64,000 nucleotides of DNA from Isoperla grammatica (Eukaryota > Arthropoda > Insecta > Plecoptera > Perlodidae): NCBI GenBank assembly GCA_945910005.1, contig OX246749.1, positions 34,622,084 to 34,686,083 on the forward strand, in the 5' to 3' direction. Below, piece after piece: positions 38,684 to 64,000 of this stretch (the first letter of the stretch is position 1; every line of letters begins with the position of its first letter). The notes under the pieces are model-generated. The model did not search any database and had not been told where the DNA came from. It worked only from the letters and a program-made list of their open reading frames with translations. The position numbers were made by a program, and so were the translations under genes.

Positions 38684-39337
38684 CTGAAACCGACAGATAT
38701 ATATCACGATGACGTCACAAACTCGATTTATTTAATTATTAACACTTTGTTTCTTCACAGACTATGATAAATATTTGTAATATTTTAATGTTATCAGTAT
38801 AGTTTATCATAAATTACTAATCAAAGCAACAGCGTTGGTGGTTATAGAAATAACTCCATGATAGAGTAAGTAAGGCTTACGAAACACAGTAGACTGTGTG
38901 CTCGATATAGTTGATTGGTTAGATACGATTGAAACAGTCGGCTTTAATACCGACCACTATAAAATCCATACAGACTCAAAATCAAAGTGTTTCGGGATGT
39001 GTATGTTGAGAGCACTATATTATACAATATTGCAACAATGTGTGCATGATTTCGTAGTAGCAACAAAACGTTACCAAAATATTCAAACCGTTTACGATTC
39101 TGATTATGAATTAATTCAAACTGCCCCTAGAGCGATTACGGTTACTACTAAGTTCTTACGGAACCTCACGTTTTGCAAAATAGCAATTATAGCGTTTTCA
39201 ATATATCCTTGTACGCGTTAACGGGCATATGCACACACGTCTTACATCGAGAGGTTAAATCTACGGTTCTCACCTCTAGGCGTGAGCAGAGCAACAACAA
39301 CAACAACAATCGTCGCGATAGTTCTCGGCGTCTTCAT
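35805..39337 (-). CDS. Repetitive mucin-like single-pass membrane protein, two exons
   Basis: Exon 1 is 39337-39274 and exon 2 is 38683-35805, joined across a 590-bp phase-1 intron (donor AGAG/GTGAGA, acceptor TCGGTTTCAG). This gives 980 residues. Residues 1-18, MKTPRTIATIVVVVVALL, are a clear signal peptide, with a likely cut near VWA-AP. Then come about fifteen 11-residue repeats (HVGGGIDLGGR type), about twenty 20-residue repeats (MPGIMDSTITPDNTDRPDAV type), three 37-38-residue repeats (MSSTATDIGEDET... type), a unique linker, a membrane segment (VMVLLLWSAAVVVLLLIVI) and a cytoplasmic tail of about 45 residues with Cys and His. The Thr/Ser/Pro-rich repeats suggest O-glycosylation (inference). 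No family is recognised. Both strands of the repeats are open, but signal peptide, splice sites and membrane segment fix this strand. It is divergent from GNPTAB. Confidence 0.8.
36300..36720 (-). repeat. 111-114-bp coding repeats
   Basis: About three and a half units, with GCAGTACTGCTCATAAATCC at 36361, 36475 and 36586. Each encodes 37-38 residues with MSSTATDIGEDET and MSSTVSAI. All unit lengths are multiples of 3. Confidence 0.85.
36780..37740 (-). repeat. 60-bp coding repeats
   Basis: About sixteen phase-locked 60-bp units, nearly identical at 37080-37560, encoding 20 residues (MPGIMDSTITPDNTDRPDAV). Further diverged copies continue to about 37930. The most uniform units are central, as expected for unequal exchange. 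Confidence 0.9.
38030..38535 (-). repeat. 33-bp coding repeats
   Basis: About fifteen units of 33 bp encode HVGGGIDLGGR with H/N and R/T variants. One unit is shortened (DLGGIGLGGR) but stays in frame. Confidence 0.9.
39274..39337 (-). CDS. Repeat protein exon 1 (signal peptide)
   Basis: 64 nt: 21 codons plus one base. Start chosen as the only ATG in frame with the signal peptide. A run of GTT codons encodes the Val-rich core. The donor GTGAGA follows. Confidence 0.75.
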
Positions 39338-40034: not shown

Positions 40035-40153
40035 ATGAAGCCATGGAAGATTCTGCAAAGGCATACGTACGATTTACTATCACACAAGTACGCCTTGGTC
40101 ATTATCGTTCTAGCATTTACTACAATATTGGTATCCGCCATTCAATTCGGTGA
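40016..40153 (+). other. Overlapping upstream ORF across GNPTAB exon 1
   Basis: An ATG at 40016, 19 bases before the chosen start, opens another frame that stays open for 45 codons and stops (TGA 40151-40153) at the last bases of exon 1. If it lies in the mRNA it could reduce GNPTAB translation. Confidence 0.4.
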
Positions 40154-40154
40154 G
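40035..40154 (+). CDS. GNPTAB: GNPTAB exon 1
   Basis: 40 codons, [20 protein letters not shown] then a hydrophobic signal anchor ending IQFGE. Phase-0 donor GTAAGT. An in-frame ATG at 40023 would add four residues. 40035 was chosen because it gives the usual length before the QRHTY motif. Confidence 0.88.
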
Positions 40155-46100: not shown

Positions 46101-49100
46101 GGCATTCGCAATGCGGTGGCAATACTTCGCTAAGTCCTCTTCGTTGGAACAAATCCTGTGTCCTCGTATGGCGAGTGCGTGTGGTAAGGCTTGTTTCGTA
46201 TAGTTGGGGTGGCAGCTGTCATAATGCAGATATTGCTGACTGTTGGTTGGTTTGAAATGGACGCTGGTTTCCAGGTGTCCATCCCGGATCCAGACATCGA
46301 CGTCTAAAAAGTTGACGTGGTGTTTGGAGATTTCCCACGTGAAGCGTAGCGAGGTAAAGGTGTTTAGTTCCTCTAAGAAGGTCGCGAAAGATTCTTCACC
46401 ATGGGTCCAAATAGCGTAGATGTCGTCGATGAACCGGAACCAACAGAGCGGTTGTAAACCCTGTGTCTTCAGGAAGTCCGTTTCAACTTTGCCCATGAAC
46501 AGGTTGGCGTAAGATGGAGCCATCCTGGTGCCCATGGCCGTTCCCTTCGTTTGGAGGTAGTGGCGGTCCATGAAGCTGAAGTTGTTCATTGATAGGACCA
46601 GCTGCGATAGTCCTACCAAGAATTGGGTATCGGGTTTGGTGTTCTGGGGTCTGCTGTTGAGGTACTTTTCTAAGGCTGAGAGTCCTTGTGTGGTGGGTAT
46701 GTTTGTATATAGAGAAGTGACATCTATGGTGGCCATAAGGGCGTTGGCAGGGAGGGGCATGGCCAGACTCTTCAGTTTCTCTAGAAAATCATATGTGTCT
46801 TTGATGTGAGACTCTAAACCGGTGACCAGGGGTTGTAGATGGTAATCAACAAACGCAGAGATGCGCTCCGTGGGTGAGTCGAAGCTGGCGACAATAGGGC
46901 GCCCTGGGTTGTTCGGTTTGTGGATTTTTGGGAGCATATAGAAGGTCGGTGTGCGGGGTTCCTTAGGGGTCAGGAGATTGATGTCGTTCTCGCTGAGGTT
47001 TTGGGCCTTCCCTCGACTGTTGACAAAATCTTTGACCTTCTGCAGGTGTGTTGTTGTTGGGTCTCCTTGTAACAGCTTGTATCCATCTTACGCCAACCTG
47101 TTCATGGGCAAAGTTGAAACGGACTTCCTGAAGACACAGGGTTTACAACCGCTCTGTTGGTTCCGGTTCATCGACGACATCTACGCTATTTGGACCCATG
47201 GTGAAGAATCTTTCGCGACCTTCTTAGAGGAACTAAACACCTTTACCTCGCTACGCTTCACGTGGGAAATCTCCAAACACCACGTCAACTTTTTAGACGT
47301 CGATGTCTGGATCCGGGATGGACACCTGGAAACCAGCGTCCATTTCAAACCAACCAACAGTCAGCAATATCTGCATTATGACAGCTGCCACCCCAACTAT
47401 ACGAAACAAGCCTTACCACACGCACTCGCCATACGAGGACACAGGATTTGTTCCAACGAAGAGGACTTAGCGAAGTATTGCCACCGCATTGCGAATGCCT
47501 TTGTGGCTCGGGGATACCCCCGCCAGAAAGTCCTAAACCAAATCCATCGGCCAAACAAACCACGCACTCCACCCAACAACAGCATTATCCCACTAGTCAC
47601 CCAGTGGCACCCAGGCTTACACGTACTAAATGGCATTATGAAGCGAGGAGCCCACATCCTCAAATCCTCAGCTCTCACCAACGACCTGGCGAAAAACCTA
47701 CCGCGGGTGTACTTCCGGCGCCCACCTAACATCAGCGACCGCATCGTTAGGCACACCCCAGACAGGAAGAAGGAGAAGCTGCCCCTACCCCGGGGATCAC
47801 ACCCATGCCACAGACCACGTTGTAAGACCTGCGCCATCCACCCTTCCACTACTTCTTTCACTGCTCGAGCCACCGGAAAAACATACCCCATCAGGCAACA
47901 CTACAACTGCACCACAACCAACCTGATCTACCAACTACAGTGCCAACTATGCCCGGCCGAGTACATAGGCCTAACGACCAACTCACTAAGTACTCGAATG
48001 AATGGGCATAGGCAGGACACTGTACAGAAACTTGACCTTAAACCCGTGGCCCAACATGCAGGCACCCACAACAAGGGGTTTAATGATTGCTACACTACCA
48101 GGGTAGTAAGATCATTACCCCCTTCCTGCAACGAGGAGCACCTGAGGCAATGGGAACTGGCGCATCAAATAGTTACCAACTCGCGCCAAAAGCCCAACCT
48201 CAACCTAAGGTAGGCCTAGGCCACCTACCCCTAGGCCCCTCCCTCCTCCCACACCGCCACCACAACCAACAGCGCCTTGTAAATATCGTGTAAATAGTAT
48301 TTTTAAATTGAAATAGCTTTAGTCTTCTTCAACGGTCGGTGACCAAGGCCACGTAGGCCGAAACGTTCGACAATAATGTGTAAATAAATATCTGTGTTAA
48401 TCTTCACCTCAAGCAGCCACCCACAACCTTTCAGGTAAGCTGTTGGTCTCCTTTCTTCTTTCCCCAATATACATCTATAAAGAATCTTTAGAGTGTCGTA
48501 GGCATTGATGAATACTACGACATTGAATACCTCTCCACATTGTTGTAAGTGGTTTTGATATGGAAAATAACGTGCATAAAACAGTTGTGTAGCAATCTTT
48601 TCTTTGCAACGGGCTGTGGGTTGTTACGGCCCCTAACTCTACAGTACTATCATGCTGTGGAAGTCTAGAACACCTTACAGTAGAAGATACACGCGGATGC
48701 ATAGATGCCCCCTCACCAGACATTGAGTAGTGAGTGCGAGCTTGTGTGTTGCAGGATACCGGGCTTGTCCACTCTCTTCCTCTACCTCAACGACGATGTC
48801 ATGTTCGGAAGAGACGTCTGGCCGGAAGACTTCATCACCCCCGCCAACGGACAGAAGGTGATTAATAATCGTAATAAATCAAGTGTGAAATTATATCTAT
48901 TGAAACTGTTGGGGCATTTAACAATGCTCTTCAAAATTGTCTTTCTCTTGTAGCAGGGATACGTAATTACCATGAAATCCAGAAGACTGCGATCCCGAAT
49001 AACTCACATTTTGAGAAACGTTTCTAGTTCGACGACATAGTTTCTATAATTTATGATGATCGATTTGCCTACTTCTCTTTTTCAAAGTGTTAGAAACATG

Positions 49101-52100
49101 TTTTCAATTTTCTTGTTCTTTAAATGAGGTTAATGTTTGGTGATACATGGTCTCTCCATACTTGTAAATGTACTGGTGTATCCAAATACAGAATAATAAT
49201 AACAATATGTGGTCTCCCCTGCATGTAATGGTCATTGTGGGTGACCCCCAGTGCAATGTCTGTGACTGTGGGTGTCTGGTTGCAGGTGTACCTATTGTGG
49301 GGTGTCCCGGACTGCTCCCCCGCATGTAATAGTCATGTGTGGGTGACCCCCAGTGCAATGTCTGTGACTGTGTATCTGTGTCTGTGTGTGTGTGTCTGTG
49401 TGGGTGTCGGTTGCAGGTGTACCTAACGTGGGGTGTCCCGGACTGCTCCCCCGCATGTAATAGTCATGTGTGGGTGACCCCCAGTGCAATGTCTGTGACT
49501 GTGGGTGTCTGGTTGCAGGTGTACCTATCGTGGGGTGTCCCGGACTGCTCCCCCGCATGTAATGGTCATGTGTGGGTGACCCCCAGTGCAATGTCTGTGA
49601 CTGTGGGTGTCTGGTTGCAGGTGTACCTATCGTGGGGTGTCCCGGACTGCTCCCCCGCATGTCCGTGGTCCTGGGTAGGAGATGGGGCTTGTGACCCCCA
49701 GTGCAACAACTCGGTCTGTTTCTTCGACAACGGAGATTGCCGGCCCGACGCCCTCCTTTCCGAGGAGGAAGAGCAGAACTACCAACAGATGGGTGAGCGA
49801 GCAATAAAGAACTCAATATAATTTATTTTTTCCAGTTGTAGAAGCTGGGAGGAGGATAAAGACTTTTAACGTTCAACTTTCAGCTCACATGGTGGGAGAA
49901 GACCTGAGCCCTCACGACGATCAACGCAACCTGGTGGCGGAACTGCAAAACAGCGAAGCGGAGCGAAACATTGACGACATCTTCAACGACAGACGCAAGC
50001 GCGACACCGACTTCGGGCCGGACAAGAAAAACCAAAGAGACATCCAAGGCGGGATGTCGGCAAACGTACAAAGACCGCGAGAGAATACCAAAGAAGTTGA
50101 GCCGCTCGGGTTCGAGAGATTTACAAACAAGTCTGAACGTGACGGCCGTAACCAAAGAGCTCGTGATGATCCCCTTCCCTATGATGTAAGTAGACCACTG
50201 ATTTCAACTTAAGGTTTGACATTATAGACAGTTGGAACAATGGAAACACATAGGCCTACTGTAGCGTCCACACAAACGTTTTAATTCTTAGGTGTCTTTT
50301 TTAAGGTTTTGTTTCCTGTTTAATGCTGGCCAACTTTCAACTCTCAACTTAAAAACAAATTACGAATAACCAAAGTCATAGGTTCCATCTAATAGCCTGC
50401 TACTGCAGAATTGCATAATTGCTGTAGGCAAGGCTACCTTAGTGGTTTGTAATAAATTATGGACAATACAGACCTGGATAAATTTGTAGTGGTGCATCAC
50501 GATAATTTAACACGTCAACATGCTACCAAAGTTATTTTAAATCATAGCTTCAACAAAACTCGCGATTCTTATGACTTTATATGAACCAGGGGCGTTTAAA
50601 ACAACGTCTTAATGGAAAGAAATAAATGTTATAAATGGAACTAAATCGCACATTGCCTTCTCAGTGTAAATCAATGTTTAACTAATCAAGTTCTGAATTG
50701 AACCAGGAGGTTCACAAAACCACCTCGATTATCACGGCGGCCACGCATGCCAACGCGACAAGACAAACTAGACGCAACAGGGATGCCACCGCGATGAGAA
50801 GAACGAGGGACATCCTGCAGATAGTGGGCCCGAACGCCAGTCAAGGTCGCATGAAGGACGTCCTGCGTCGGCTCTACGTGGGTCAGAGGTCGAGCCGCGT
50901 CGGCAGGTTCAACCGGACGAGAGAGTCGCGGTATCGGCTACGCGGGCGATACGGGGGCTCGACCAATCACAGCGCGGCCTACTCCAAGGTCGGCAACGCG
51001 ACCCGTTGGGGAACACAGAACTCTACGGAGCACAGCTGGCGACAGGGTACGTCCCACTCGCATCGTGTTTTACTTGCAGCTGTTTAATTACATATCAGAT
51101 GGTGCAACAAGTATAGGGGGGAAAGCCTGCAACAAGTTTTAAGTATAGGGAGCTTGCAATAACGTAATTTCCGGTATCGCACGGTGGCCATACTGAGGTA
51201 CTCTGTAAACATTTGTTTACGTTCTTCCGACACTGCATTGTTGCAATATTGCAGATGTCCTTTGACTGACACATCAACTGTTTTCAAACAAAGGTTCCGT
51301 AATATGACTGAAAACAAAATAAGAACGCGTAAACTCTGTTTGAAGACAATCATTTGCATGTGTTATCATTTTCTTGAATTTTTACCTGCACACATCAATC
51401 TATACGGCTTGAAAAGTCTGTGATATCTCCTGTATAACCTATGTGTCTTCTATTGACAGAACAAATGTAAACAAGCAATGTGTACCTCATAATGGCCGCC
51501 AGGTGACGTCTATTGAAAGCTACCTATGACCGTCATTGTAACATAAGCATTAGCTACTTGTTAGTACAAGATAATCGTTTACTATCACTTATGTAATCGA
51601 ACATAGTGATCAATATTAAAATAACTTAGGCACTGATAACCTTGCTGTTTTGTGCCTTTAAACTCCAAGAATAAATAAATAAATAATACTTGTTAGTAGG
51701 CTTTGTACCGTTTCACATTTATTGGAATTGTTTATTATTTGTAGAGATTGGCAAACATACGCACGTTTCGTGTTTAGGGAGGTTTTTTCGATTATTTCGG
51801 CAACTGTTCGTCGTAGAGCAAACCGGACCGTTCAGGTATGGCTTGAACTTGAAGTCAAGTTAGGTATTTAAGCTCGTGGCTCTGCCCTCAGAAATGATCC
51901 TTAATACAGTATCTTCCTTTGAGGAAAGTTGGGTGCTTACTGTTTTTATTACAAGGTACACGATCCGACTGTGATATATTGAGCTTATTCCCATAACTGG
52001 GTTAAACGGTACCATTGCTGTTAATTTGACTGTTGATTTTTAATGTCGATGGGGCATTAATGAATAATAGTAATAGAGAGATCTTTATTCAGTTTGATAT

Positions 52101-55100
52101 ATACATATTACATACATAGTATAAGCAAGGCTATAAGTAACATTTTTATTTTTTAGAGAAATTTGCAAAATTTAGTTTTGAAAGCAAGTTTTCTAGCTGC
52201 AAACACTGAATGTGATTGAGTCTGCTTGCAGCGAGCGTTCGCCCGGAGAACGTCACCGCCCACGGCAAGCGTCGCCCGAAGCACTGGCTGCACGCCGGGG
52301 CCGAACGCTCGATGGAACGCCCGGGCCAAATGGACACGTTTGCCGAGTCCCTTCTCTACGTGAACCAACTGTTGAACCGGGCGTACGGGTTCGCTCCTCG
52401 CAAAGTGCCGGCTCACATGCCCCACTTAGTGGACCGGGGGGTGATGGGCCGCTTGCAAGACAAGTAGGTTCCATTACTATCTTAAGTCAGTAAATAGTGT
52501 TCTTCTTTTATATTATTTTTTTAATTAATTAAGTTATTATAATTATTATATTGATTTCATTTCTTAGCTGTATAACCACAATAGAAGATTGTATGTACAT
52601 TGTCAAGATGGGTTAAATATTACATCATAAGGTTGTATAGGCCTAGAAGTCATTGCATGGCTTTGTAACAACATGAACAACAAAATGTAACAACAAAATG
52701 TAACAGCAAAATGTAACAACATGACAAATCCCTTGTAAAACGATCTCTTTGCATGCTAATACAAACAAACAAACAAACACATGCACACACACACACCGGT
52801 AACAGATCTGTGTGAATGTTGATAGTAAGGCCATGTCTCAATGCTTCGTAATCATCTAAACAGTTGCCCAAACCACAGTGATCAACAATGAAAGTGACAT
52901 CTAAAGAAGACGGCAGTGGTGCCGTGATTGGCTGGCAGTGAGTTAGCAGACTCGGAGCTTTTAGATACATGCCGTAAGTAAACGCAGCCGTTCTGTCTCA
53001 GGTTCGCCGAGGAGTGGCTGACAACGTCTTCACATCGCGTACGTAGTTCTCGCGACATGCAGTTTGCCTTCTCGTACTTCTACTTCCTGATGAGCGAGAA
53101 GGTCAACGTTTCCACCGCGGAGATATTCCGGACGTTCGACACGGACCGCTCGGGGTGAGGAGAACAAATCCACAACAACTTTCACTCTCTTTAATTCAAG
53201 TTTTTAAACTACCCTAAAACTCTAATTTGAATTAGAAAATTAAAAAAAGATGATTGGTCAAATGCATAGTCACTGTTCATCACGTGTGCTCCTCAACTCA
53301 GCCTTTCCTCAGACTCGCCCAACCACCAATCACAAAGCAGCATTGCCGTGTGGACGGCGCTGTGATTTGTGATTGGGCGAGTCTGAGGAAAGGCTGAGTT
53401 GAGGAGCACGTGAGGAACATTTATCCATTTGACTCTTAACCTTCTACGAGGACGTTATCACTGGTTTCAAGTTTGAATTATGCATTAATTTCCATTAAAT
53501 TAACCTTATTTTAAAGTAGTTACAATTACATAATGTAGAGACAGTAAGGACTAGTTTTTCAATATGTCTTTAATCATTATTTAATAACATAGCTTAGTCA
53601 GCACTGTTACTAGTTTAAAAATGATTGTACGATCATAATTACAACAAAGAAGTAGTGGTTGCTATGTCACATTTCAAATTGTTATTTATTTTGGTAAAAC
53701 TGGAGCACAGCTGATCCGTTTTTTTCACTTACCCCTTCTTCAAATTTGAGGAAGGGGTATTTTGAAGAAGGAGTAATTTATTTTTAGTTGCGTCTCCGTG
53801 TAGGGTTAGGCCTACCTCATTTCATTTCCCTTTATTGTGGTTCAAGACCTACATCTCCCTAACCTTTTGAACGTCTTTATAAAGTTGCGTCTCCGTGTAG
53901 GCCTAGGCCTAGGCCTCGCTCGTACGCCATATTGCCATATTTAACGTGATTCACATGTCAAAACAATGCATTTTAAAAATGGAAATTAACTATCAAAAAA
54001 CGTACTACAGTATTTGTAGAAAAAAAAAAAGTGGAAGTTACAGATAAATAATCAGACAATGTGTATGTACTACTTACGTAATCTATCTCCCAAAGGAATA
54101 CACAAAAGAAGTGAGTAGAAACCGGATCAGTCGTTCGTAAGAAATACCTTTTTATTTTATTATGTGACCTTGGCAGTTAGACCCGTGGTTGTTATTCTCG
54201 TAGGACGTGGTCTGACCGAGAGCTGCGGACACTGTTGACGAGGCTGTTCGAGGTCCCGCTGAGCTACCATCGCGTCCTCTACGTGGAGCAACTGTTGACC
54301 AACTGCTCGCAGCATTTCCCCCCCGAGACCCTGACCACTCCGCCTTACGAGAGATACCAGGACTCCAAGCTGGTGAGTGATGCCCGTAGAACGCTGTGGT
54401 GTAGATGTATACAACTGTTGACCAACTGCTCGCAGCATTTCCCCCCCGAGACCCTGACCACTCCGCCTTATGAGAGATACCAGGACTCCAAGCTGGTGAG
54501 TGATGCCCGTAGAACGCTGTGGTGTAGATGTATACAAGGTATCTTGACTCAAACCAACACACAGGGCTGCTAAGCAACCCCCTTATCTGCACCGTTGATG
54601 ATTTAACAATAAATTAACAATGAACAATTGATAGAGCTAATCTCCTCCTCATAATAATTTCACTTTTCTTGCCATCAGATTGCATCTAGTCTATTTTTAA
54701 CGGTCATATTTACAACAATTTGAATAAAATATTTAGAAAGTCTATTTTTTAGAAAATTGATAGTTTAATATCACAGAGAGTGAGAAAAATTAGTTTTTAA
54801 GTTGTGTGAGATAATCTAAAATTATCTACGCACGCGCATTGTTCAAAACGCTACATGATTTCAAAATTAGTGAGCCGCATCATGGTTTCGTAATCTTTCT
54901 CCCGACTAAAACGTTGACCCGACCTCTGTCTCCAGCCAATCATATCGCAGCGCCTGGTGACCTCGTGCCGGCCAATGGCCAAACTACTCTCGGACAAGTT
55001 CGGCCAGCGTAACCGGTACAAGTTCGAGGTGGTCAAGGATCGAACCCAGGACGTCAGCTTCAAGATGCTCAGTTCCAACCTCAGCCACTTGGTGCAGCAC

Positions 55101-55924
55101 TTGGACGACGTGCGGAGGCAGCCCAAGTACGCTGACAGTTATTATTGATTTATTATTCCCGACCTCATTGTTGGGCACGGGAGCAGATATAAAAAAAAAT
55201 ACAACCATAGGGCACTAGCAACACCAAAAGACAACAATGAAACAAATTAATTGAATCGATGGACAAACAACAAGCTGTCAAAGAATAATTCCTTCCGATT
55301 TTGGAAAAAAAAAAAAAAAAAAATACACATACAAAACTTTCACTTAGTTGTTGTCTATCATTAAAAGTTTTAAATGGCTGGCAGTTACTATTGCTACACT
55401 TGTTTTTATTTCTATGGTTGCAAGTTTATTATTTTGACAGCTGATGGTTTGTCCATCAGTTCAATTCATTTGTTGCATTGTTGTCTTTTGGTGTTGCTAG
55501 TGCCCTATAAGCCTAATAATAAAATAAAGTAAATAATAATATATAACAATAAATAAAAACATTACAATTATTATTATTAGGCCTAGTTAACTAACCAAAT
55601 AATTAATTATAGTTAATTTATTGTTATTACACTGAGAATGGTTGTTGTTGTTGTCCTGGCAGGAAGTTCATCTGCCTGAACGACAACCTGGACCCCTCCC
55701 GTGAGAGCGACAACGCCGTCGCGCGTGCAGTGTTGCAAGACTTCTACGAGTCTCTGTTCCCGCTGGCCTCGACCTTCGAGCTGCCCCCCGACCTTCGCAA
55801 CAGGTTCCTGCACGTCCGCGACCTTGAGCGATGGCGCGACAACCGGGCGAGGCTGCGGTCGGCCATCTACGTCTGTCTGCTGGGGCTGGCAGCCTTCACT
55901 GCCGTCAACCTCTTCAGCACTGAG
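40035..55924 (+). CDS. GNPTAB: GlcNAc-1-phosphotransferase alpha/beta precursor, 15 exons, 3' incomplete
   Basis: This enzyme of the Golgi transfers GlcNAc-1-phosphate to mannose on lysosomal hydrolases, the first step of the mannose-6-phosphate tag (family knowledge). Exons: 40035-40154, 40715-40965, 41568-41737, 43356-43540, 44030-44152, 44582-44781, 48755-48857, 49621-49792, 49884-50185, 50707-51046, 52232-52463, 53002-53154, 54204-54372, 54936-55126, 55663-55924; 2973 nt, 991 codons, all phases agree. Domains: signal anchor (20-36), Stealth CR1 (about 76-90, [14 protein letters not shown]), CR2 (about 284-384), one LNR/Notch repeat with six Cys (394-424), charged middle (442-656), CR3 (about 700-770), EF-hand-like FDTDRSGTWSDREL (about 778-792), CR4 (about 904-960), C-terminal membrane segment (about 968-988). 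Vertebrate proteins are longer, with a second LNR and a DMAP-binding region, which I do not see here. The cytoplasmic tail exon is outside the window. Confidence 0.93.
40715..40965 (+). CDS. GNPTAB: GNPTAB exon 2 (Stealth CR1)
   Basis: Starts [14 protein letters not shown] and carries the CR1 motif [14 protein letters not shown], thought to form part of the catalytic site in Stealth proteins. Acceptor GCGCAACAG, donor ACAG/GTATTG, phase 2 at the end. Confidence 0.93.
40966..41567 (+). other. GNPTAB intron 2
   Basis: No gene. Positions 41005-41200 are a diverged relative of the sequence at 14215-14500 and 28.8-29.0 kb, so an interspersed repeat. Ends in a TCTCTCTCTCTCGCAG acceptor. Confidence 0.5.
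41568..41737 (+). CDS. GNPTAB: GNPTAB exon 3
   Basis: Encodes [18 protein letters not shown] and [20 protein letters not shown], the variable region between CR1 and CR2. Starts in phase 2, ends in phase 1 at ACGG/GTGAGT. Called from open frame and matching phases. Confidence 0.85.
41738..42160 (+). other. GNPTAB intron 3, left part
   Basis: AT-rich; nothing recognised before the LINE. Confidence 0.4.
42165..43322 (+). mobile_element. 5'-truncated Jockey/CR1-type LINE in GNPTAB intron 3
   Basis: Encodes [68 protein letters not shown] and [18 protein letters not shown]: the distal RT and C-terminal part of a non-LTR element, ending at 43061. A 3' UTR and an (AAT)n tail at 43300-43322 follow. 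Uninterrupted ORF, so fairly young. Same strand as the host gene. Confidence 0.88.
43356..43540 (+). CDS. GNPTAB: GNPTAB exon 4
   Basis: Encodes [20 protein letters not shown] and [20 protein letters not shown]. Phase 1 at start, 0 at end (CTACAG/GTGGGT). It begins only 33 bp after the LINE tail. Confidence 0.88.
43541..44029 (+). other. GNPTAB intron 4
   Basis: T-rich; a LINE-tail-like end (CCTAAAAATAAAATAATT) near 43845-43865. No gene. Confidence 0.4.
44030..44152 (+). CDS. GNPTAB: GNPTAB exon 5
   Basis: 41 codons, [20 protein letters not shown] to [10 protein letters not shown], the stretch just before CR2. Phase 0 on both sides. Confidence 0.9.
44153..44581 (+). other. GNPTAB intron 5
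   Basis: AT-rich; nothing recognised. The acceptor is GATGTCCCCAG; the nearer AG at 44565 would break the frame. Confidence 0.5.
44582..44781 (+). CDS. GNPTAB: GNPTAB exon 6 (Stealth CR2)
   Basis: Encodes [40 protein letters not shown] and [15 protein letters not shown], the CR2 core. Ends in phase 2 (CACAG/GTACGC). Confidence 0.95.
45076..45090. repeat. Target-site duplication, left
   Basis: TATAAAGAATCTTTA, repeated exactly at 48476-48490. It bounds the Penelope-like insertion. Confidence 0.92.
45387..47081 (-). CDS. Penelope-like RT with GIY-YIG endonuclease, 5'-truncated
   Basis: 564 codons remain. RT motifs: [20 protein letters not shown] near 46950, [38 protein letters not shown] near 46520 and [11 protein letters not shown] near 46420 (IDD catalytic triad). 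C-terminal: a Cys/His-rich [11 protein letters not shown] linker and a GIY-YIG domain ([20 protein letters not shown] ... R near 45620-45690). The frame is open to 47081, where the element is cut; the N-terminus is missing. Family knowledge: Penelope-like elements use RT plus GIY-YIG to insert. Confidence 0.9.
   Translation of the reverse strand, partial: YKLLQGDPTTTHLQKVKDFVNSRGKAQNLSENDINLLTPKEPRTPTFYMLPKIHKPNNPGRPIVASFDSPTERISAFVDYHLQPLVTGLESHIKDTYDFLEKLKSLAMPLPANALMATIDVTSLYTNIPTTQGLSALEKYLNSRPQNTKPDTQFLVGLSQLVLSMNNFSFMDRHYLQTKGTAMGTRMAPSYANLFMGKVETDFLKTQGLQPLCWFRFIDDIYAIWTHGEESFATFLEELNTFTSLRFTWEISKHHVNFLDVDVWIRDGHLETSVHFKPTNSQQYLHYDSCHPNYTKQALPHALAIRGHRICSNEEDLAKYCHRIANAFVARGYPRQKVLNQIHRPNKPRTPPNNSIIPLVTQWHPGLHVLNGIMKRGAHILKSSALTNDLAKNLPRVYFRRPPNISDRIVRHTPDRKKEKLPLPRGSHPCHRPRCKTCAIHPSTTSFTARATGKTYPIRQHYNCTTTNLIYQLQCQLCPAEYIGLTTNSLSTRMNGHRQDTVQKLDLKPVAQHAGTHNKGFNDCYTTRVVRSLPPSCNEEHLRQWELAHQIVTNSRQKPNLNLR
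47083..48213 (+). CDS. Penelope-like element, second copy, more truncated
   Basis: 376 codons from [19 protein letters not shown] to NLNLR and stop, identical in protein sequence to the distal part of the left copy. It keeps [11 protein letters not shown] and the GIY-YIG domain but lacks the proximal RT. Confidence 0.9.
   Translation, partial: PSYANLFMGKVETDFLKTQGLQPLCWFRFIDDIYAIWTHGEESFATFLEELNTFTSLRFTWEISKHHVNFLDVDVWIRDGHLETSVHFKPTNSQQYLHYDSCHPNYTKQALPHALAIRGHRICSNEEDLAKYCHRIANAFVARGYPRQKVLNQIHRPNKPRTPPNNSIIPLVTQWHPGLHVLNGIMKRGAHILKSSALTNDLAKNLPRVYFRRPPNISDRIVRHTPDRKKEKLPLPRGSHPCHRPRCKTCAIHPSTTSFTARATGKTYPIRQHYNCTTTNLIYQLQCQLCPAEYIGLTTNSLSTRMNGHRQDTVQKLDLKPVAQHAGTHNKGFNDCYTTRVVRSLPPSCNEEHLRQWELAHQIVTNSRQKPNLNLR
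48339..48365 (+). ncRNA. Hammerhead-ribozyme-like core in Penelope 3' region
   Basis: GTGACCA, a GGCC-ACGTA-GGCC stem-loop, then GAAACG. This has the layout of the hammerhead core (CUGANGA, stem II, GAAA) known from Penelope-like elements, but with G at position 3 and C at position 8. An identical copy is at 45235-45261 on the minus strand. Stems I and III are not convincing, so activity is doubtful. Confidence 0.35.
48476..48490. repeat. Target-site duplication, right
   Basis: TATAAAGAATCTTTA, the partner of 45076-45090. Confidence 0.92.
48755..48857 (+). CDS. GNPTAB: GNPTAB exon 7 (CR2 end)
   Basis: Encodes [20 protein letters not shown] and [14 protein letters not shown]. Includes the conserved YLNDDVMFG motif. 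Starts phase 2, ends phase 0. The donor GTGATT is weak. Confidence 0.95.
48858..49215 (+). other. GNPTAB intron 7, unique part
   Basis: AT-rich; nothing recognised. Confidence 0.4.
49216..49660 (+). repeat. 102-bp tandem repeats across the exon 8 acceptor
   Basis: The acceptor plus exon start (TTGCAG/GTGTACCTA...) occurs at 49286, 49417, 49519 and 49621, so spacings are 131, 102 and 102 bp. Only the last copy continues into the full exon. In the others, exon sequence stops after GCATGTAAT and a degenerate piece of the LNR coding region (GTGACCCCCAGTGCAATG) follows. A TGTG microsatellite enlarges the 131-bp unit. The two regular units are 34 codons long and stay open in the exon frame. Confidence 0.88.
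49621..49792 (+). CDS. GNPTAB: GNPTAB exon 8 (LNR/Notch repeat)
   Basis: Encodes [38 protein letters not shown]: six Cys with the LNR spacing and Asp/Asn calcium ligands. Phase 0 at start, 1 at end (ATGG/GTGAGC). The last of four equivalent acceptors was used because only it leads to the full exon. Confidence 0.93.
49884..50185 (+). CDS. GNPTAB: GNPTAB exon 9
   Basis: About 100 mostly charged residues ([54 protein letters not shown]). Contains RRKR, a possible furin-type site (model residues 478-481). Low conservation; called from frame, splice sites and phase. Confidence 0.8.
50186..50706 (+). other. GNPTAB intron 9
   Basis: AT-rich; nothing recognised. Confidence 0.4.
50707..51046 (+). 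CDS. GNPTAB: GNPTAB exon 10
   Basis: About 113 residues, very Arg-rich ([40 protein letters not shown]). Phase 0 at start, 1 at end (CAGG/GTACGT). Several NxS/T sites. No domain recognised; it lies where vertebrate proteins have a longer spacer. Confidence 0.8.
51047..52231 (+). other. GNPTAB intron 10
   Basis: No gene. An (AAAT)n run near 51670-51688 looks like a LINE tail. Confidence 0.4.
52232..52463 (+). CDS. GNPTAB: GNPTAB exon 11 (CR3 start)
   Basis: Encodes [20 protein letters not shown] and [20 protein letters not shown], the start of the beta-subunit region and CR3. The position corresponding to the vertebrate alpha/beta cleavage (just before the DTFA-like motif) reads RPGQM and lacks a clear site-1 protease motif. 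Ends in phase 2 at CAA/GTAGGT. Confidence 0.93.
52464..53001 (+). other. GNPTAB intron 11 with LINE 3' UTR fragment
   Basis: 52555-52665 closely matches 28150-28262, the 3' UTR of the CR1/L2-like LINE. 52700-52800 has short AACAAAATGT and CAAACAAACA repeats. No gene. Confidence 0.55.
53002..53154 (+). CDS. GNPTAB: GNPTAB exon 12 (CR3 end)
   Basis: Encodes [40 protein letters not shown] and the start of an EF-hand-like loop (FDTDRSG). Phase 2 on both sides. Confidence 0.95.
53155..54203 (+). other. GNPTAB intron 12 with inverted repeat
   Basis: 53281-53337 and 53364-53412 are complementary (TGCTCCTCAACTCAGCCTTT...), with a loop of about 26 bp. A fold-back element without recognisable target duplication. 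The rest is AT-rich. Confidence 0.6.
54204..54372 (+). CDS. GNPTAB: GNPTAB exon 13
   Basis: Encodes [20 protein letters not shown] and [20 protein letters not shown] to YQDSKL. Phase 0 donor CTG/GTGAGT. Its second half is duplicated just downstream. Confidence 0.93.
54289..54534 (+). repeat. 123-bp tandem duplication across the exon 13 donor
   Basis: Two copies, starting 54289 and 54412, each with the exon end, the GTGAGT donor and about 40 bp of intron. They differ by about one base (CCTTACGAG against CCTTATGAG), so the event is recent. 123 bp is 41 codons, and read-through stays open for about 60 codons. In copy 2 an acceptor-like CTGCTCGCAG precedes an in-frame 20-codon segment ([20 protein letters not shown]). 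Confidence 0.9.
54535..54935 (+). other. GNPTAB intron 13, unique part
   Basis: AT-rich; nothing recognised. Confidence 0.4.
54936..55126 (+). CDS. GNPTAB: GNPTAB exon 14
   Basis: Encodes [40 protein letters not shown] and [16 protein letters not shown], conserved between EF-hand region and CR4. Phase 0 at start, 2 at end (CCCAA/GTACGC). Confidence 0.93.
55127..55662 (+). other. GNPTAB intron 14 with fold-back MITE
   Basis: Arms at about 55208-55290 and 55430-55508 are complementary (TAGGGCACTAGCAACACCAA at the left, its complement at the right). Same family as 33.80-34.00 kb. An A run of about 20 lies at 55303-55322. Confidence 0.65.
55663..55924 (+). CDS. GNPTAB: GNPTAB exon 15 (CR4 and membrane segment)
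   Basis: Encodes [60 protein letters not shown] and the membrane segment [19 protein letters not shown], ending STE at a phase-0 GAG/GTGAGT donor. The following exon with the cytoplasmic tail should lie past the tandem array. Confidence 0.95.
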
Positions 55925-58900
55925 GTGAGTCTTCTTCTTCTTCTCTTGTGCCCACGTTGACGTGTATGTCATCATGTGTCTTGACAACCAGGCCAGGCTG
56001 CATCTACGTCTGTCTGCAGCCTTCACTGCCGTCAACCTCTTCAGCACTGAGGTGAGTCTTCTTCTTCTTCTCTTGTGCCCACGTTGACGTGTATGTCATC
56101 ATGTGTCTTGACAACCAGGCCAGGCTGCATCTACGTCTGTCTGCAGCCTTCACTGCCGTCAACCTCTTCAGCACTGAGGTGAGTCTTCTTCTTCTTCTCT
56201 TGTGCCCACGTTGACGTGTATGTCATCATGTGTCTTGACAACCAGGCCAGGCTGCATCTACGTCTGTCTGCTGGGGCTGGCGGCCTTCACTGCCGTCAAC
56301 CTCTTCAGCACTGAGGTGAGTCTTCTTCTTCTTCTCTTGTGCCCACGTTGACGTGTATGTCATCATGTGTCTTGACAACCAGGCCAGGCTGCATCTACGT
56401 CTGTCTGCTGGGGCTGGCAGCCTTCACTGCCGTCAACCTCTTCAGCACTGAGGTGAGTCTTCTTCTTCTTCTCTTGTGCCCACGTTGACGTGTATGTCAT
56501 CATGTGTCTTGACAACCAGGCCAGGCTGCATCTACGTCTGTCTGCAGCCTTCACTGCCGTCAACCTCTTCAGCACTGAGGTGAGTCTTCTTCGTCTTCTC
56601 TTGTGCCCACGTTGACGTGTATGTCATCACGTGTCTTGACAACCAGGCCAGGCTGCATCTACGTCTGTCTGCAGCCTTCACTGCCGTCAACCTCTTCAGC
56701 ACTGAGGTGAGTCTTCTTCTTCTTCTCTTGTGCCCACGTTGACGTGTATGTCATCATGTGTCTTGACAACCAGGCCAGGCTGCATCTACGTCTGTCTGCA
56801 GCCTTCACTGCCGTCAACCTCTTCAGCACTGAGGTGAGTCTTCTTCTTCTTCTCTTGTGCCCACGTTGACGTGTATGTCATCATGTGTCTTGACAACCAG
56901 GCCAGGCTGCATCTACGTCTGTCTGCAGCCTTCACTGCCGTCAACCTCTTCAGCACTGAGGTGAGTCTTCTTCTTCTTCTCTTGTGCCCACGTTGACGTG
57001 TATGTCATCATGTGTCTTGACAACCGGGCCAGGCTGCATCTACGTCTGTCTGCAGCCTTCACTGCCGTCAACCTCTTCAGCACTGAGGTGAGTCTTCTTC
57101 TTCTTCTCTTGTGCCCACGTTGACGTGTATGTCATCATGTGTCTTGACAACCAGGCCAGGCTGCATCTACGTCTGTCTGCAGCCTTCACTGCCGTCAACC
57201 TCTTCAGCACTGAGGTGAGTCTTCTTCTTCTTCTCTTGTGCCCACGTTGACGTGTATGTCATCATGTGTCTTGACAACCAGGCCAGGCTGCATCTACGTC
57301 TGTCTGCAGCCTTCACTGCCGTCAACCTCTTCAGCACTGAGGTGAGTCTTCTTCTTCTTCTCTTGTGCCCACGTTGACGTGTATGTCATCATGTGTCTTG
57401 ACAACCAGGCCAGGCTGCATCTACGTCTGTCTGCAGCCTTCACTGCCGTCAACCTCTTCAGCACTGAGGTGAGTCTTCTTCTTCTTCTCTTGTGCCCACG
57501 TTGACGTGTATGTCATCATGTGTCTTGACAACCAGGCCAGGCTGCATCTACGTCTGTCTGCAGCCTTCACTGCCGTCAACCTCTTCAGCACTGAGGTGAG
57601 TCTTCTTCTTCTTCTCTTGTGCCCACGTTGACGTGTATGTCATCATGTGTCTTGACAACCAGGCCAGGCTGCATCTACGTCTGTCTGCTGGGGCTGGCAG
57701 CCTTCACTGCCGTCAACCTCTTCAGCACTGAGGTGAGTCTTCTTCTTCTTCTCTTGTGCCCACGTTGACGTGTATGTCATCACGTGTCTTGACAACCAGG
57801 CCAGGCTGCATCTACGTCTGTCTGCTGGGGCTGGCCGCCTTCACTGCCGTCAACCTCTTCAGCACTGAGGTGAGTCTTCTTCTTCTTCTCTTGTGCCCAC
57901 GTTGACGTGTATGTCATCACGTGTCTTGACAACCAGGCCAGGCTGCATCTACGTCTGTCTGCTGGGGCTGGCAGCCTTCACTGCCGTCAACCTCTTCAGC
58001 ACTGAGGTGAGTCTTCTTCTTCTTCTCTTGTGCCCACGTTGACGTGTATGTCATCATGTGTCCTGACAACCAGGCCAGGCTGCATCTACGTCTGTCTGCT
58101 GGGGCTGGCAGCCTTCACTGCCGTCAACCTCTTCAGCACTGAGGTGAGTCTTCTTCTTCTTCTCTTGTGCCCACGTTGACATGTATGTCATCATGTGTCT
58201 TGACAACCAGGCCAGGCTGCATCTACGTCTGTCTGCAGCCTTCACTGCCGTCAACCTCTTCAGCACTGAGGTGAGTCTTCTTCTTCTTCTCTTGTGCCCA
58301 CGTTGACGTGTATGTCATCATGTGTCTTGACAACCAGGCCAGGCTGCATCTACGTCTGTCTGCAGCCTTCACTGCCGTCAACCTCTTCAGCACTGAGGTG
58401 AGTCTTCTTCTTCTTCTCTTGTGCCCACGTTGACGTGTATGTCATCACGTGTCTTGACAACCAGGCCAGGCTGCATCTACGTCTGTCTGCAGCCTTCACT
58501 GCCGTCAACCTCTTCAGCACTGAGGTGAGTCTTCTTCTTCTTCTCTTGTGCCCACGTTGACGTGTATGTCATCATGTGTCTTGACAACCAGGCCAGGCTG
58601 CATCTACGTCTGTCTGCTGGGGCTGGCAGCCTTCACTGCCGTCAACCTCTTCAGCACTGAGGTGAGTCTTCTTCTTCTTCTCTTGTGCCCACGTTGACGT
58701 GTATGTCATCACGTGTCTTGACAACCAGGCCAGGCTGCATCTACGTCTGTCTGCAGCCTTCACTGCCGTCAACCTCTTCAGCACTGAGGTGAGTCTTCTT
58801 CTTCTTCTCTTGTGCCCACGTTGACGTGTATGTCATCACGTGTCTTGACAACCAGGCCAGGCTGCATCTACGTCTGTCTGCAGCCTTCACTGCCGTCAAC

Positions 58901-61900
58901 CTCTTCAGCACTGAGGTGAGTCTTCTTCTTCTTCTCTTGTGCCCACGTTGACGTGTATGTCATCATGTGTCTTGACAACCAGGCCAGGCTGCATCTACGT
59001 CTGTCTGCAGCCTTCACTGCCGTCAACCTCTTCAGCACTGAGGTGAGTCTTCTTCTTCTTCTCTTGTGCCCACGTTGACGTGTATGTCATCATGTGTCTT
59101 GACAACCAGGCCAGGCTGCATCTACGTCTGTCTGCAGCCTTCACTGCCGTCAACCTCTTCAGCACTGAGGTGAGTCTTCTTCTTCTTCTCTTGTGCCCAC
59201 GTTGACGTGTATGTCATCACGTGTCTTGACAACCAGGCCAGGCTGCATCTACGTCTGTCTGCAGCCTTCACTGCCGTCAACCTCTTCAGCACTGAGGTGA
59301 GTCTTCTTCTTCTTCTCTTGTGCCCACGTTGACGTGTATGTCATCATGTGTCTTGACAACCAGGCCAGGCTGCATCTACGTCTGTCTGCAGCCTTCACTG
59401 CCGTCAACCTCTTCAGCACTGAGGTGAGTCTTCTTCTTCTTCTCTTGTGCCCACGTTGACGTGTATGTCATCATGTGTCTTGACAACCAGGCCAGGCTGC
59501 ATCTACGTCTGTCTGCAGCCTTCACTGCCGTCAACCTCTTCAGCACTGAGGTGAGTCTTCTTCTTCTTCTCTTGTGCCCACGTTGACGTGTATGTCATCA
59601 TGTGTCTTGACAACCAGGCCAGGCTGCATCTACGTCTGTCTGCAGCCTTCACTGCCGTCAACCTCTTCAGCACTGAGGTGAGTCTTCTTCTTCTTCTCTT
59701 GTGCCCACGTTGACGTGTATGTCATCACGTGTCTTGACAACCAGGCCAGGCTGCATCTACGTCTGTCTGCAGCCTTCACTGCCGTCAACCTCTTCAGCAC
59801 TGAGGTGAGTCTTCTTCTTCTTCTCTTGTGCCCACGTTGACGTGTATGTCATCATGTGTCTTGACAACTGGGCCAGGCTGCATCTACGTCTGTCTGCTGG
59901 GGCTGGCAGCCTTCACTGCCGTCAACCTCTTCAGCACTGAGGTGAGTCTTCTTCTTCTTCTCTTGTGCCCACGTTGACGTGTATGTCATCATGTGTCTTG
60001 ACAACCAGGCCAGGCTGCATCTACGTCTGTCTGCTGGGGCTGGCAGCCTTCACTGCCGTCAACCTCTTCAGCACTGAGGTGAGTCTTCTTCTTCTTCTCT
60101 TGTGCCCACGTTGACGTGTATGTCATCATGTGTCTTGACAACCAGGCCAGGCTGCATCTACGTCTGTCTGCTGGGGCTGGCAGCCTTCACTGCCGTCAAC
60201 CTCTTCAGCACTGAGGTGAGTCTTCTTCTTCTTCTCTTGTGCCCACGTTGACGTGTATGTCATCACGTGTCCTGACAACCAGGCCAGGCTGCATCTACGT
60301 CTGTCTGCAGCCTTCACTGCCGTCAACCTCTTCAGCACTGAGGTGAGTCTTCTTCTTCTTCTCTTGTGCCCACGTTGACGTGTATGTCATCATGTGTCTT
60401 GACAACCAGGCCAGGCTGCATCTACGTCTGTCTGCTGGGGCTGGCAGCCTTCACTGCCGTCAACCTCTTCAGCACTGAGGTGAGTCTTCTTCTTCTTCTC
60501 TTGTGCCCACGTTGACGTGTATGTCATCATGTGTCTTGACAACCAGGCCAGGCTGCATCTACGTCTGTCTGCAGCCTTCACTGCCGTCAACCTCTTCAGC
60601 ACTGAGGTGAGTCTTCTTCTTCTTCTCTTGTGCCCACGTTGACGTGTATGTCATCACGTGTCTTGACAACCGGGCCAGGCTGCATCTACGTCTGTCTGCT
60701 GGGGCTGGCAGCCTTCACTGCCGTCAACCTCTTCAGCACTGAGGTGAGTCTTCTTCTTCTTCTCTTGTGCCCACGTTGACGTGTATGTCATCATGTGTCT
60801 TGACAACCAGGCCAGGCTGCATCTACGTCTGTCTGCTGGGGCTGGCAGCCTTCACTGCCGTCAACCTCTTCAGCACTGAGGTGAGTCTTCTTCTTCTTCT
60901 CTTGTGCCCACGTTGACGTGTATGTCATCATGTGTCTTGACAACCAGGCCAGGCTGCATCTACGTCTGTCTGCAGCCTTCACTGCCGTCAACCTCTTCAG
61001 CACTGAGGTGAGTCTTCTTCTTCTTCTCTTGTGCCCACGTTGACGTGTATGTCATCATGTGTCTTGACAACCAGGCCAGGCTGCATCTACGTCTGTCTGC
61101 TGGGGCTGGCAGCCTTCACTGCCGTCAACCTCTTCAGCACTGAGGTGAGTCTTCTTCTTCTTCTCTTGTGCCCACGTTGACGTGTATGTCATCATGTGTC
61201 TTGACAACCGCGCCAGGCTGCATCTACGTCTGTCTGCAGCCTTCACTGCCGTCAACCTCTTCAGCACTGAGGTGAGTCTTCTTCTTCTTCTCTTGTGCCC
61301 ACGTTGACGTGTATGTCATCATGTGTCTTGACAACCAGGCCAGGCTGCATCTACGTCTGTCTGCAGCCTTCACTGCCGTCAACCTCTTCAGCACTGAGGT
61401 GAGTCTTCTTCTTCTTCTCTTGTGCCCACGTTGACGTGTATGTCATCACGTGTCTTGACAACCAGGCCAGGCTGCATCTACGTCTGTCTGCAGCCTTCAC
61501 TGCCGTCAACCTCTTCAGCACTGAGGTGAGTCTTCTTCTTCTTCTCTTGTGCCCACGTTGACGTGTATGTCATCACGTGTCTTGACAACCAGGCCAGGCT
61601 GCATCTACGTCTGTCTGCAGCCTTCACTGCCGTCAACCTCTTCAGCACTGAGGTGAGTCTTCTTCTTCTTCTCTTGTGCCCACGTTGACGTGTATGTCAT
61701 CATGTGTCTTGACAACCAGGCCAGGCTGCATCTACGTCTGTCTGCAGCCTTCACTGCCGTCAACCTCTTCAGCACTGAGGTGAGTCTTCTTCTTCTTCTC
61801 TTGTGCCCACGTTGACGTGTATGTCATCATGTGTCTTGACAACCAGGCCAGGCTGCATCTACGTCTGTCTGCAGCCTTCACTGCCGTCAACCTCTTCAGC

Positions 61901-64000
61901 ACTGAGGTGAGTCTTCTTCTTCTTCTCTTGTGCCCACGTTGACGTGTATGTCATCATGTGTCTTGACAACCGGGCCAGGCTGCATCTACGTCTGTCTGCA
62001 GCCTTCACTGCCGTCAACCTCTTCAGCACTGAGGTGAGTCTTCTTCTTCTTCTCTAGTGCCCACGTTGACGTGTATGTCATCATGTGTCTTGACAACCGC
62101 GCCAGGCTGCATCTACGTCTGTCTGCAGCCTTCACTGCCGTCAACCTCTTCAGCACTGAGGTGAGTCTTCTTCTTCTTCTCTTGTGCCCACGTTGACGTG
62201 TATGTCATCATGTGTCTTGACAACCGCGCCAGGCTGCATCTACGTCTGTCTGCAGCCTTCACTGCCGTCAACCTCTTCAGCACTGAGGTGAGTCTTCTTC
62301 TTCTTCTCTTGTGCCCACGTTGACGTGTATGTCATCATGTGTCTTGACAACCAGGCCAGGCTGCATCTACGTCTGTCTGCAGCCTTCACTGCCGTCAACC
62401 TCTTCAGCACTGAGGTGAGTCTTCTTCTTCTTCTCTTGTGCCCACGTTGACGTGTATGTCATCACGTGTCTTGACAACCAGGCCAGGCTGCATCTACGTC
62501 TGTCTGCTGGGGCTGGCAGCCTTCACTGCCGTCAACCTCTTCAGCACTGAGGTGAGTCTTCTTCTTCTTCTCTTGTGCCCACGTTGACGTGTATGTCATC
62601 ATGTGTCTTGACAACCAGGCCAGGCTGCATCTACGTCTGTCTGCTGGGGCTGGCAGCCTTCACTGCCGTCAACCTCTTCAGCACTGAGGTGAGTCTTCTT
62701 CTTCTTCTCTTGTGCCCACGTTGACGTGTATGTCATCACGTGTCTTGACAACCAGGCCAGGCTGCATCTACGTCTGTCTGCTGGGGCTGGCAGCCTTCAC
62801 TGCCGTCAACCTCTTCAGCACTGAGGTGAGTCTTCTTCTTCTTCTCTTGTGCCCACGTTGACGTGTATGTCATCATGTGTCTTGACAACCAGGCCAGGCT
62901 GCATCTACGTCTGTCTGCAGCCTTCACTGCCGTCAACCTCTTCAGCACTGAGGTGAGTCTTCTTCTTCTTCTCTTGTGCCCACGTTGACGTGTATGTCAT
63001 CATGTGTCCTGACAACCAGGCCAGGCTGCATCTACGTCTGTCTGCAGCCTTCACTGCCGTCAACCTCTTCAGCACTGAGGTGAGTCTTCTTCTTCTTCTC
63101 TTGTGCCCACGTTGACGTGTATGTCATCATGTGTCTTGACAACCAGGCCAGGCTGCATCTACGTCTGTCTGCAGCCTTCACTGCCGTCAACCTCTTCAGC
63201 ACTGAGGTGAGTCTTCTTCTTCTTCTCTTGTGCCCACGTTGACGTGTATGTCATCATGTGTCTTGACAACCAGGCCAGGCTGCATCTACGTCTGTCTGCA
63301 GCCTTCACTGCCGTCAACCTCTTCAGCACTGAGGTGAGTCTTCTTCTTCTTCTCTTGTGCCCACGTTGACGTGTATGTCATCACGTGTCTTGACAACCAG
63401 GCCAGGCTGCATCTACGTCTGTCTGCAGCCTTCACTGCCGTCAACCTCTTCAGCACTGAGGTGAGTCTTCTTCTTCTTCTCTTGTGCCCACGTTGACGTG
63501 TATGTCATCACGTGTCTTGACAACCAGGCCAGGCTGCATCTACGTCTGTCTGCTGGGGCTGGCAGCCTTCACTGCCGTCAACCTCTTCAGCACTGAGGTG
63601 AGTCTTCTTCTTCTTCTCTTGTGCCCACGTTGACGTGTATGTCATCACGTGTCTTGACAACCAGGCCAGGCTGCATCTACGTCTGTCTGCAGCCTTCACT
63701 GCCGTCAACCTCTTCAGCACTGAGGTGAGTCTTCTTCTTCTTCTCTTGTGCCCACGTTGACGTGTATGTCATCACGTGTCTTGACAACCAGGCCAGGCTG
63801 CATCTACGTCTGTCTGCTGGGGCTGGCAGCCTTCACTGCCGTCAACCTCTTCAGCACTGAGGTGAGTCTTCTTCTTCTTCTCTTGTGCCCACGTTGACGT
63901 GTATGTCATCATGTGTCTTGACAACCAGGCCAGGCTGCATCTACGTCTGTCTGCAGCCTTCACTGCCGTCAACCTCTTCAGCACTGAGGTGAGTCTTCTT
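55925..64000 (+). repeat. 62-copy minisatellite made from the GNPTAB exon 15 / intron 15 junction
   Basis: The donor GAG/GTGAGTC occurs 63 times from 55925 to 63989, giving 62 complete units: 43 of 127 bp and 19 of 137 bp (43x127 + 19x137 = 8064, the exact distance). Each unit has 67 bp of intron-like sequence (GTGAGTCTTCTTCTTC...GACAACCAG) and a copy of the last part of exon 15. Relative to the true exon every copy lacks 8 bp (CGGTCGGC-type deletion before ATCTACG). The 127-bp copies also lack 10 bp (TGGGGCTGGC). Units are nearly identical; variants include CCGGG, CCGCG or CTGGG for CCAGG. The array runs off the window. Confidence 0.95.

What the first reader, a model, noticed from the sequence alone, without database searches (positions are those of the whole stretch)
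55925..64000. Sixty-two tandem copies of an exon end plus splice donor inside GNPTAB
Seen: 63 GAG/GTGAGT donors in a row, in two unit lengths that account for every base. Inferred: the array began as a tandem duplication spanning the exon 15/intron 15 junction and then expanded. A VNTR made of splice sites in a lysosomal-targeting gene could change splicing, through donor competition or intron length, and vary among individuals.
Basis: partly seen in the sequence, partly recalled or inferred. Interest (0 to 1): 0.9.

Follow-up and report, generated by a model that had tools for sequence, protein, structure and literature searches.

The report
Giant splice-donor minisatellite in insect GNPTAB
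An insect's GNPTAB gene carries about 200 head-to-tail copies of the end of one exon, its splice donor and a scrap of a dispersed repeat, filling most of the last intron: an oversized case of the "mirage" minisatellites described in amphioxus, probably spliced out harmlessly from the first donor.

Summary
The window has 63 GAG/GTGAGT donors and 62 units (43 of 127 bp, 19 of 137 bp) that leave no base over. In the assembly the array runs past the window: 204 donors, 203 units, 26.5 kb. A likely terminal exon lies 1.8 kb further on (CRALHRRFFPGKRLRPQTKTEPV*), so the array would be 94% of a 28.3-kb last intron. The gene is GNPTAB of an unnamed insect.

The unit is a hybrid: about 60 nt of its intronic part match a dispersed repeat (44 places; flanks). 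That repeat and the exon share GACAACC exactly one ancestral unit (145 bp) apart, which suggests a microhomology duplication. Units are 99.1% identical.

Tandem copies also cover two other GNPTAB exon edges and both edges of one exon next door, but none of 30 sampled kinase loci.

Best reading: a "mirage" minisatellite, known from amphioxus, here far larger and in an insect. Donor 1 is probably used and the rest leaves as intron. Splicing and individual variation are untested.

The parts
55663..55924 (+). Authentic GNPTAB exon (262 nt) coding the end of Stealth CR4 and the C-terminal membrane helix (KFICLNDN...NLFSTE); donor GAG/GTGAGT in phase 0
   Evidence: coordinates, frame; PDB GNPTAB; Stealth_CR4
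55925..63988 (+). 62 whole tandem units (127 or 137 bp) inside the window, followed by 12 bases of the next; the array goes on to window-extended 82457 (203 units)
   Evidence: window; extension
55838..55924 (+). Exon part that was copied; begins with GACAACC. The units lack 8 bp of it, the 127-bp form 10 bp more
55930..55990 (+). Piece of a dispersed repeat in the intron half of the first unit (query 42-102 of the unit); ends in GACAACCA
   Evidence: 44 places at 76-88% identity; flanks
49267..49662 (+). Second boundary array in GNPTAB: acceptor plus start of the LNR exon; CAG/GTGTACCTA ends at 49285, 49416, 49518 and 49620, the last taken as authentic
   Evidence: LNR domain
54289..54537 (+). 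Third boundary duplication in GNPTAB: exon end plus donor twice (donors behind 54372 and 54495), 123 bp, CAA shared at the joins
40035..40154 (+). Likely first coding exon of GNPTAB ([12 protein letters not shown]...FGE/GTAAGT), start of the gene model
   Evidence: likeness to human GNPTAB is recalled

Best explanation
A very large minisatellite that grew from a tandem duplication across an exon/intron junction, of the kind called 'mirage' in amphioxus. A fragment of a dispersed repeat lies directly behind the donor of the penultimate coding exon of GNPTAB. It shares GACAACC with the exon 145 bp upstream, and a duplication between the two made the first extra copy. After an 8-bp deletion the unit spread to about 203 copies by unequal exchange or slippage. 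Donor 1, nearest the authentic 262-nt exon, most likely pairs with the terminal exon's acceptor, so the array leaves as intron and the protein is normal. Shown: array, unit make-up, shared GACAACC at unit distance. Supported: terminal exon. Inferred: order of events, use of donor 1, near-neutrality.
For: 203 units with 99.1% identity over the 197 of standard length. Exon part recognisable in the unit, intron part matching a dispersed repeat. GACAACC at 55838 and 55983, 145 bp apart = 137 + 8. The copy at the far end of the array keeps CTTATACCCATGTTGAC, closer to the dispersed copies (CTTAT.CCCACATTGAC in many) than the array units. Candidate terminal exon in phase 0 with a good acceptor and an insect-like tail. 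Other boundary duplications in the same gene and next door. Known precedents reported to splice normally (passages).
Against: No RNA data. The terminal exon was picked from 7 filtered candidates. Mini-exon acceptors are not excluded: by pyrimidine content the unit's ACCAG (0.59) falls within the 0.53-0.94 of seven authentic acceptors. 0 of 30 kinase loci showed a boundary array, so the process is not general across exons. The repeat's class is inferred from copies that share one end and differ at the other.
Confidence: 0.8

Rival explanations
1. The array influences GNPTAB output: 204 identical donors compete, or bind U1 snRNP along 26 kb and slow or shield the last intron. Reading on past donor 1 would replace the tail by VSLLLLLLCPR and a stop, probably with loss of the mRNA.
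For: All 204 donors carry the intact 9-mer; reading on gives the short new tail; the intron is 28.3 kb, nearly all array.
Against: No sign that donors are kept by selection: 16 variable of 127 columns, none in the 9-mer, P 0.29. Amphioxus mirages are reported not to disturb splicing (passages).
Confidence: 0.1
2. The units act as real mini-exons: each has GT...AG of 67 nt followed by a 60-nt piece in phase 0 (127-bp form), so short introns are removed one by one and the protein gains copies of [20 protein letters not shown].
For: 60 nt open in phase 0 in the 127-bp form; the CAG is present in 55 of 62 window units and 169 of 203 in all; another AG made by the 10-bp deletion scores 5.2, near the 95th percentile of window AGs; a 43-nt intron at 49793-49835 is implied by the frames.
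Against: The 137-bp form gives 70 nt with a stop in phase 0, and the third unit is of that form. The ACCAG scores -2.95 against 0.7 to 14.7 for 10 of 11 authentic acceptors (the eleventh scores -11.5, so the yardstick is rough), and 30% of 2859 window AGs score as high.
Confidence: 0.05
3. Assembly artefact: the true copy number is small or very different.
For: An identical 2361-bp block of 18 units occurs twice about 1 kb apart, which a mis-joined read could also give. No raw reads seen.
Against: 37 distinct units in an aperiodic order; in the window no run of 5 or more unit types recurs, runs of the commonest unit left aside; in all 203 one run of 6 or more recurs. The contig is 40.6 Mb and the 134 kb read here hold no N.
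Confidence: 0.05

Closest known systems
'Mirage' minisatellites of amphioxus (Adh3, globin genes BflGb6 and BflGb9, TnC, PGBD5); passages of PMC3087553 and PMC3902484 seen, the original Adh and TnC papers not seen
   [quoted passage not shown] several genes of one genome hit
   Different: Here an insect; 203 units against 3 and 6 in the two BflGb6 haplotypes; units 127-137 bp against 10-72 bp (Adh3) and 150-160 bp (globins); part of the unit is a dispersed repeat; splicing and length variation untested
Intron gain by tandem duplication of AG/GT proto-splice sites (discussed in PMC2891723 for Drosophila, passages seen, and in PMC3087553)
   Same: Duplication of a junction that carries AG/GT
   Different: Here an existing intron is enlarged; no new intron is shown
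Variable internal tandem repeats that change human gene structure (PMC2812944, passages seen)
   Same: Minisatellite expansion at an exon-intron boundary can alter gene structure
   Different: There units average 30 bp, about 4 copies, in recent segmental duplications
Intron-filling minisatellites of earthworm metallothionein genes (PMC12783039, passages seen)
   Same: Minisatellite in an intron; duplicated exons reported absent from the final transcript
   Different: The passages seen do not describe a unit made of exon end plus donor

Membership tests
Mirage minisatellite | Tandem repeat unit spans an exon/intron boundary | tested here: met
   Exon part, donor and intron part in each unit
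Mirage minisatellite | Copied splice signals (AG/GT) in the repeats | tested here: met
   GAG/GTGAGT at all 204 junctions
Mirage minisatellite | Regular splicing is not disturbed | not testable with these tools
   No RNA data; only a plausible in-phase terminal exon
Mirage minisatellite | Length instability between haplotypes or cells | not testable with these tools
   One assembled haplotype; high identity and a duplicated 18-unit block fit recent turnover
Introner-type dispersed introns | Dispersed copies are themselves introns with GT-AG ends | tested here: not met
   In the flanks printed for 13 loci the shared piece has no GT at its start and runs past CAACCA without the unit's AG
Tandem duplication of a whole exon | Unit holds the exon with its own acceptor and donor | tested here: not met
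   The unit starts inside the exon (55838); the authentic acceptor before 55663 is not in it
Intron gain by AG/GT duplication | The sequence between duplicated AG/GT sites is spliced as a new intron | not testable with these tools
   Needs cDNA

The most novel reading that the evidence does not exclude
A hypervariable splice-donor minisatellite in an insect whose copy number tunes how the last GNPTAB intron is removed, and so how much transferase with its proper C-terminal tail is made; and this genome makes such arrays by a route in which dispersed-repeat tails and microhomology copy exon/intron junctions.
Probability: 0.1. Interest if true: 0.75.

Novelty: new member of a known kind. Interest (0 to 1): 0.5.

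Why it matters
About 204 identical donors in a row behind one exon are a natural experiment on how the spliceosome picks a 5' splice site when the local sequence gives no clue. The case also takes boundary-spanning minisatellites from amphioxus to an insect, at a far larger size, and offers a likely molecular start (dispersed-repeat fragment plus 7-bp microhomology). Gene predictors may take such arrays for many exons.

Tried and rejected
Amphioxus as the source, my first guess from the mirage literature: rejected; the top protein hits are insects (Anabrus, Periplaneta, Cryptotermes, Gryllus) and the tree puts the protein in an unresolved insect group. Introner reading, raised when about 60 nt of the unit matched 44 places: not met. 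Selection on the donors: no signal. Bias of arrays to exon boundaries: all 3 GNPTAB arrays with period over 100 span one, chance about 0.002 to 0.007, but post hoc, n = 3, on an approximate list of 25 boundaries; 0 of 30 kinase loci speaks against a general rule. Clustering of unit types: identical neighbours no more than by chance (21% against 20%); equal lengths side by side slightly more (41 against 34.6, 82 of 2000 shuffles reach it). Species by assembly size: no paper. Penelope-like ORF as a taxon marker: no clear answer. A 201-aa GNPTAB piece found no closer named species. Hairpins: single-strand DNA z -2.1 and -2.4; RNA z -2.3 for the 127-bp unit, -0.25 for the 137-bp unit, -0.28 for the authentic junction; could favour slippage, not pursued. 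Ten paper searches listed no insect mirage; the library lacks most subscription journals. Some rows of my scripts are off by one or a few bases and were not used: several donor rows, and E3, E6 and CTGCAG.

Full report
Observation. The window holds 63 GAG/GTGAGT donors from 55922 on, and none in the rest of the + strand or on the - strand. The 62 intervals are 127 bp (43) or 137 bp (19) and leave no base over; 12 bases of the next unit end the window. There are 16 distinct units in the window.

The window cuts the array. It lies at C17:34622084-34686083 of an 874-Mb assembly. In the next 20 kb the array runs on: 204 donors, 203 units, 37 distinct, 26,533 bp. Mean pairwise identity is 99.1% over the 197 units of standard length, with 16 variable of 127 columns; the 6 units of other lengths were left out of that count. 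One block of 18 units (2361 bp) occurs twice, identical, about 1 kb apart.

Gene. The exon at 55663-55924 matches four PDB GNPTAB sequences (best E 2.1e-18) and Stealth_CR4. A hand-joined partial protein has insect GNPTAB as its top hits among the best 120 listed of 2438. Behind the array, at window-extended 84274, the acceptor CCCCTGTTTCAG opens TGTCGGGCG..., in phase 0, coding CRALHRRFFPGKRLRPQTKTEPV and a stop. It is one of 7 candidates of a filtered search that asked for a basic tail ending in V; I chose it for its acceptor and for its likeness to insect tails such as CRVFQRR... (Anabrus) and CRWLQRK... (Periplaneta). If right, the last intron is 55925-84273, 28,349 bp, 94% of it array.

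Make-up of the unit. The exon part runs from GACAACC to GAG; 8 bp of the authentic exon are absent from 203 of 203 units, and the 127-bp form lacks 10 more. The intron part is GTGAG followed by about 60 nt that match 44 places in the genome at 76-88% identity, a lower bound by the tool's own note; some of these places are tandem neighbours, and the array itself is not among them. In the flanks printed for 13 loci the repeat starts in a TCT-rich run and continues past CAACCA into other sequence; copies share that end and differ in how far they agree at the other. This fits 5'-truncated non-LTR elements in reverse orientation; the class is inference. In L015, L018 and L019 pieces of the same repeat are in tandem without the GNPTAB exon. 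Exon and repeat share GACAACC at 55838 and 55983, 145 bp apart = 137 + 8. A duplication at this microhomology is the simplest founder event.

Other boundary arrays. In the same gene the acceptor of the LNR exon is present four times (spacings 131, 102, 102) and another donor twice (123 bp, CAA at the join). In the next gene on the minus strand one exon has both edges repeated: acceptor side 131 bp x 5.0, donor side 94 bp x 3.8. I read that gene as PPP2R3C from memory; the tests are weak (PDB PP2A B'' subunit, E 0.01; no Pfam match). As a wider sample, 30 kinase loci (108,525 bases) had 0 arrays of period 40 or more over the coding match; L029 has 104-bp units that begin around the stop codon, and L050 an array 1 kb away. 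Many of these 30 matches are long and cover most of the domain, so few exon edges were sampled. Nine other loci (43,509 bases) held 2 arrays. Boundary arrays are thus repeated here but not everywhere.

What it does. The donors are identical, so only position or context can single one out. Donor 1 ends the real exon and with the terminal acceptor gives the normal tail; this is my preferred outcome. Reading on into the array would add VSLLLLLLCPR and stop. The copies also contain AGs; the one 67 nt behind each donor would make a 60-nt phase-0 piece in 127-bp units and a 70-nt piece with a stop in 137-bp units. Its score against the gene's own acceptors is poor (-2.95), but that yardstick has 11 sites and gives one authentic site -11.5; by plain pyrimidine content it is not set apart. 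The frames imply a 43-nt intron at 49793-49835, so short introns may be spliced in this gene and the mini-exon reading stays open at low odds.

Comparison. Tandem duplications of exon/intron boundaries are known as mirages in amphioxus: 6 and 3 units in two haplotypes of BflGb6, also BflGb9, Adh3, TnC and PGBD5, reported not to disturb regular splicing (passages). This array meets the sequence features; splicing and length variation are untested. It differs in host, size and the dispersed-repeat part. None of ten paper searches listed an insect case, within an open-licence library.

Verdict. A real feature of this assembly, larger than reported, of a known kind; striking in size, with a plausible neutral explanation and an open, easily tested question about donor choice.

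Noticed in passing
window-extended 89363-89719 and 89865-90512 (L023, outside the window): One exon of the neighbouring minus-strand gene (PPP2R3C by recall) has tandem copies of both its edges: donor side 94 bp x 3.8, acceptor side 131 bp x 5.0.
   Followed up: partly
L015, L018, L019: The dispersed repeat found in the GNPTAB unit forms short tandem arrays of its own elsewhere in the genome, at spacings near 90 to 125 bp.
   Followed up: partly
L029:823-1388: A 104-bp x 5.4 array begins around the stop codon of a protein kinase gene and runs into the 3' side.
   Followed up: partly
window 35805-38714, minus strand: A 969-aa open frame is built largely of tandem repeats (periods about 33, 60, 111-117 bp); no Pfam match.
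   Followed up: no
window 863-2155, minus strand: A 132-bp (44-codon) unit is repeated about ten times in open frame.
   Followed up: no
window 45387-48213: Two closely similar reverse-transcriptase open frames face each other in opposite orientation within a GNPTAB intron.
   Followed up: no
window-extended 120992-134000 (L026-L027, outside the window): A satellite-like array of 157-bp units runs off the stretch fetched.
   Followed up: no
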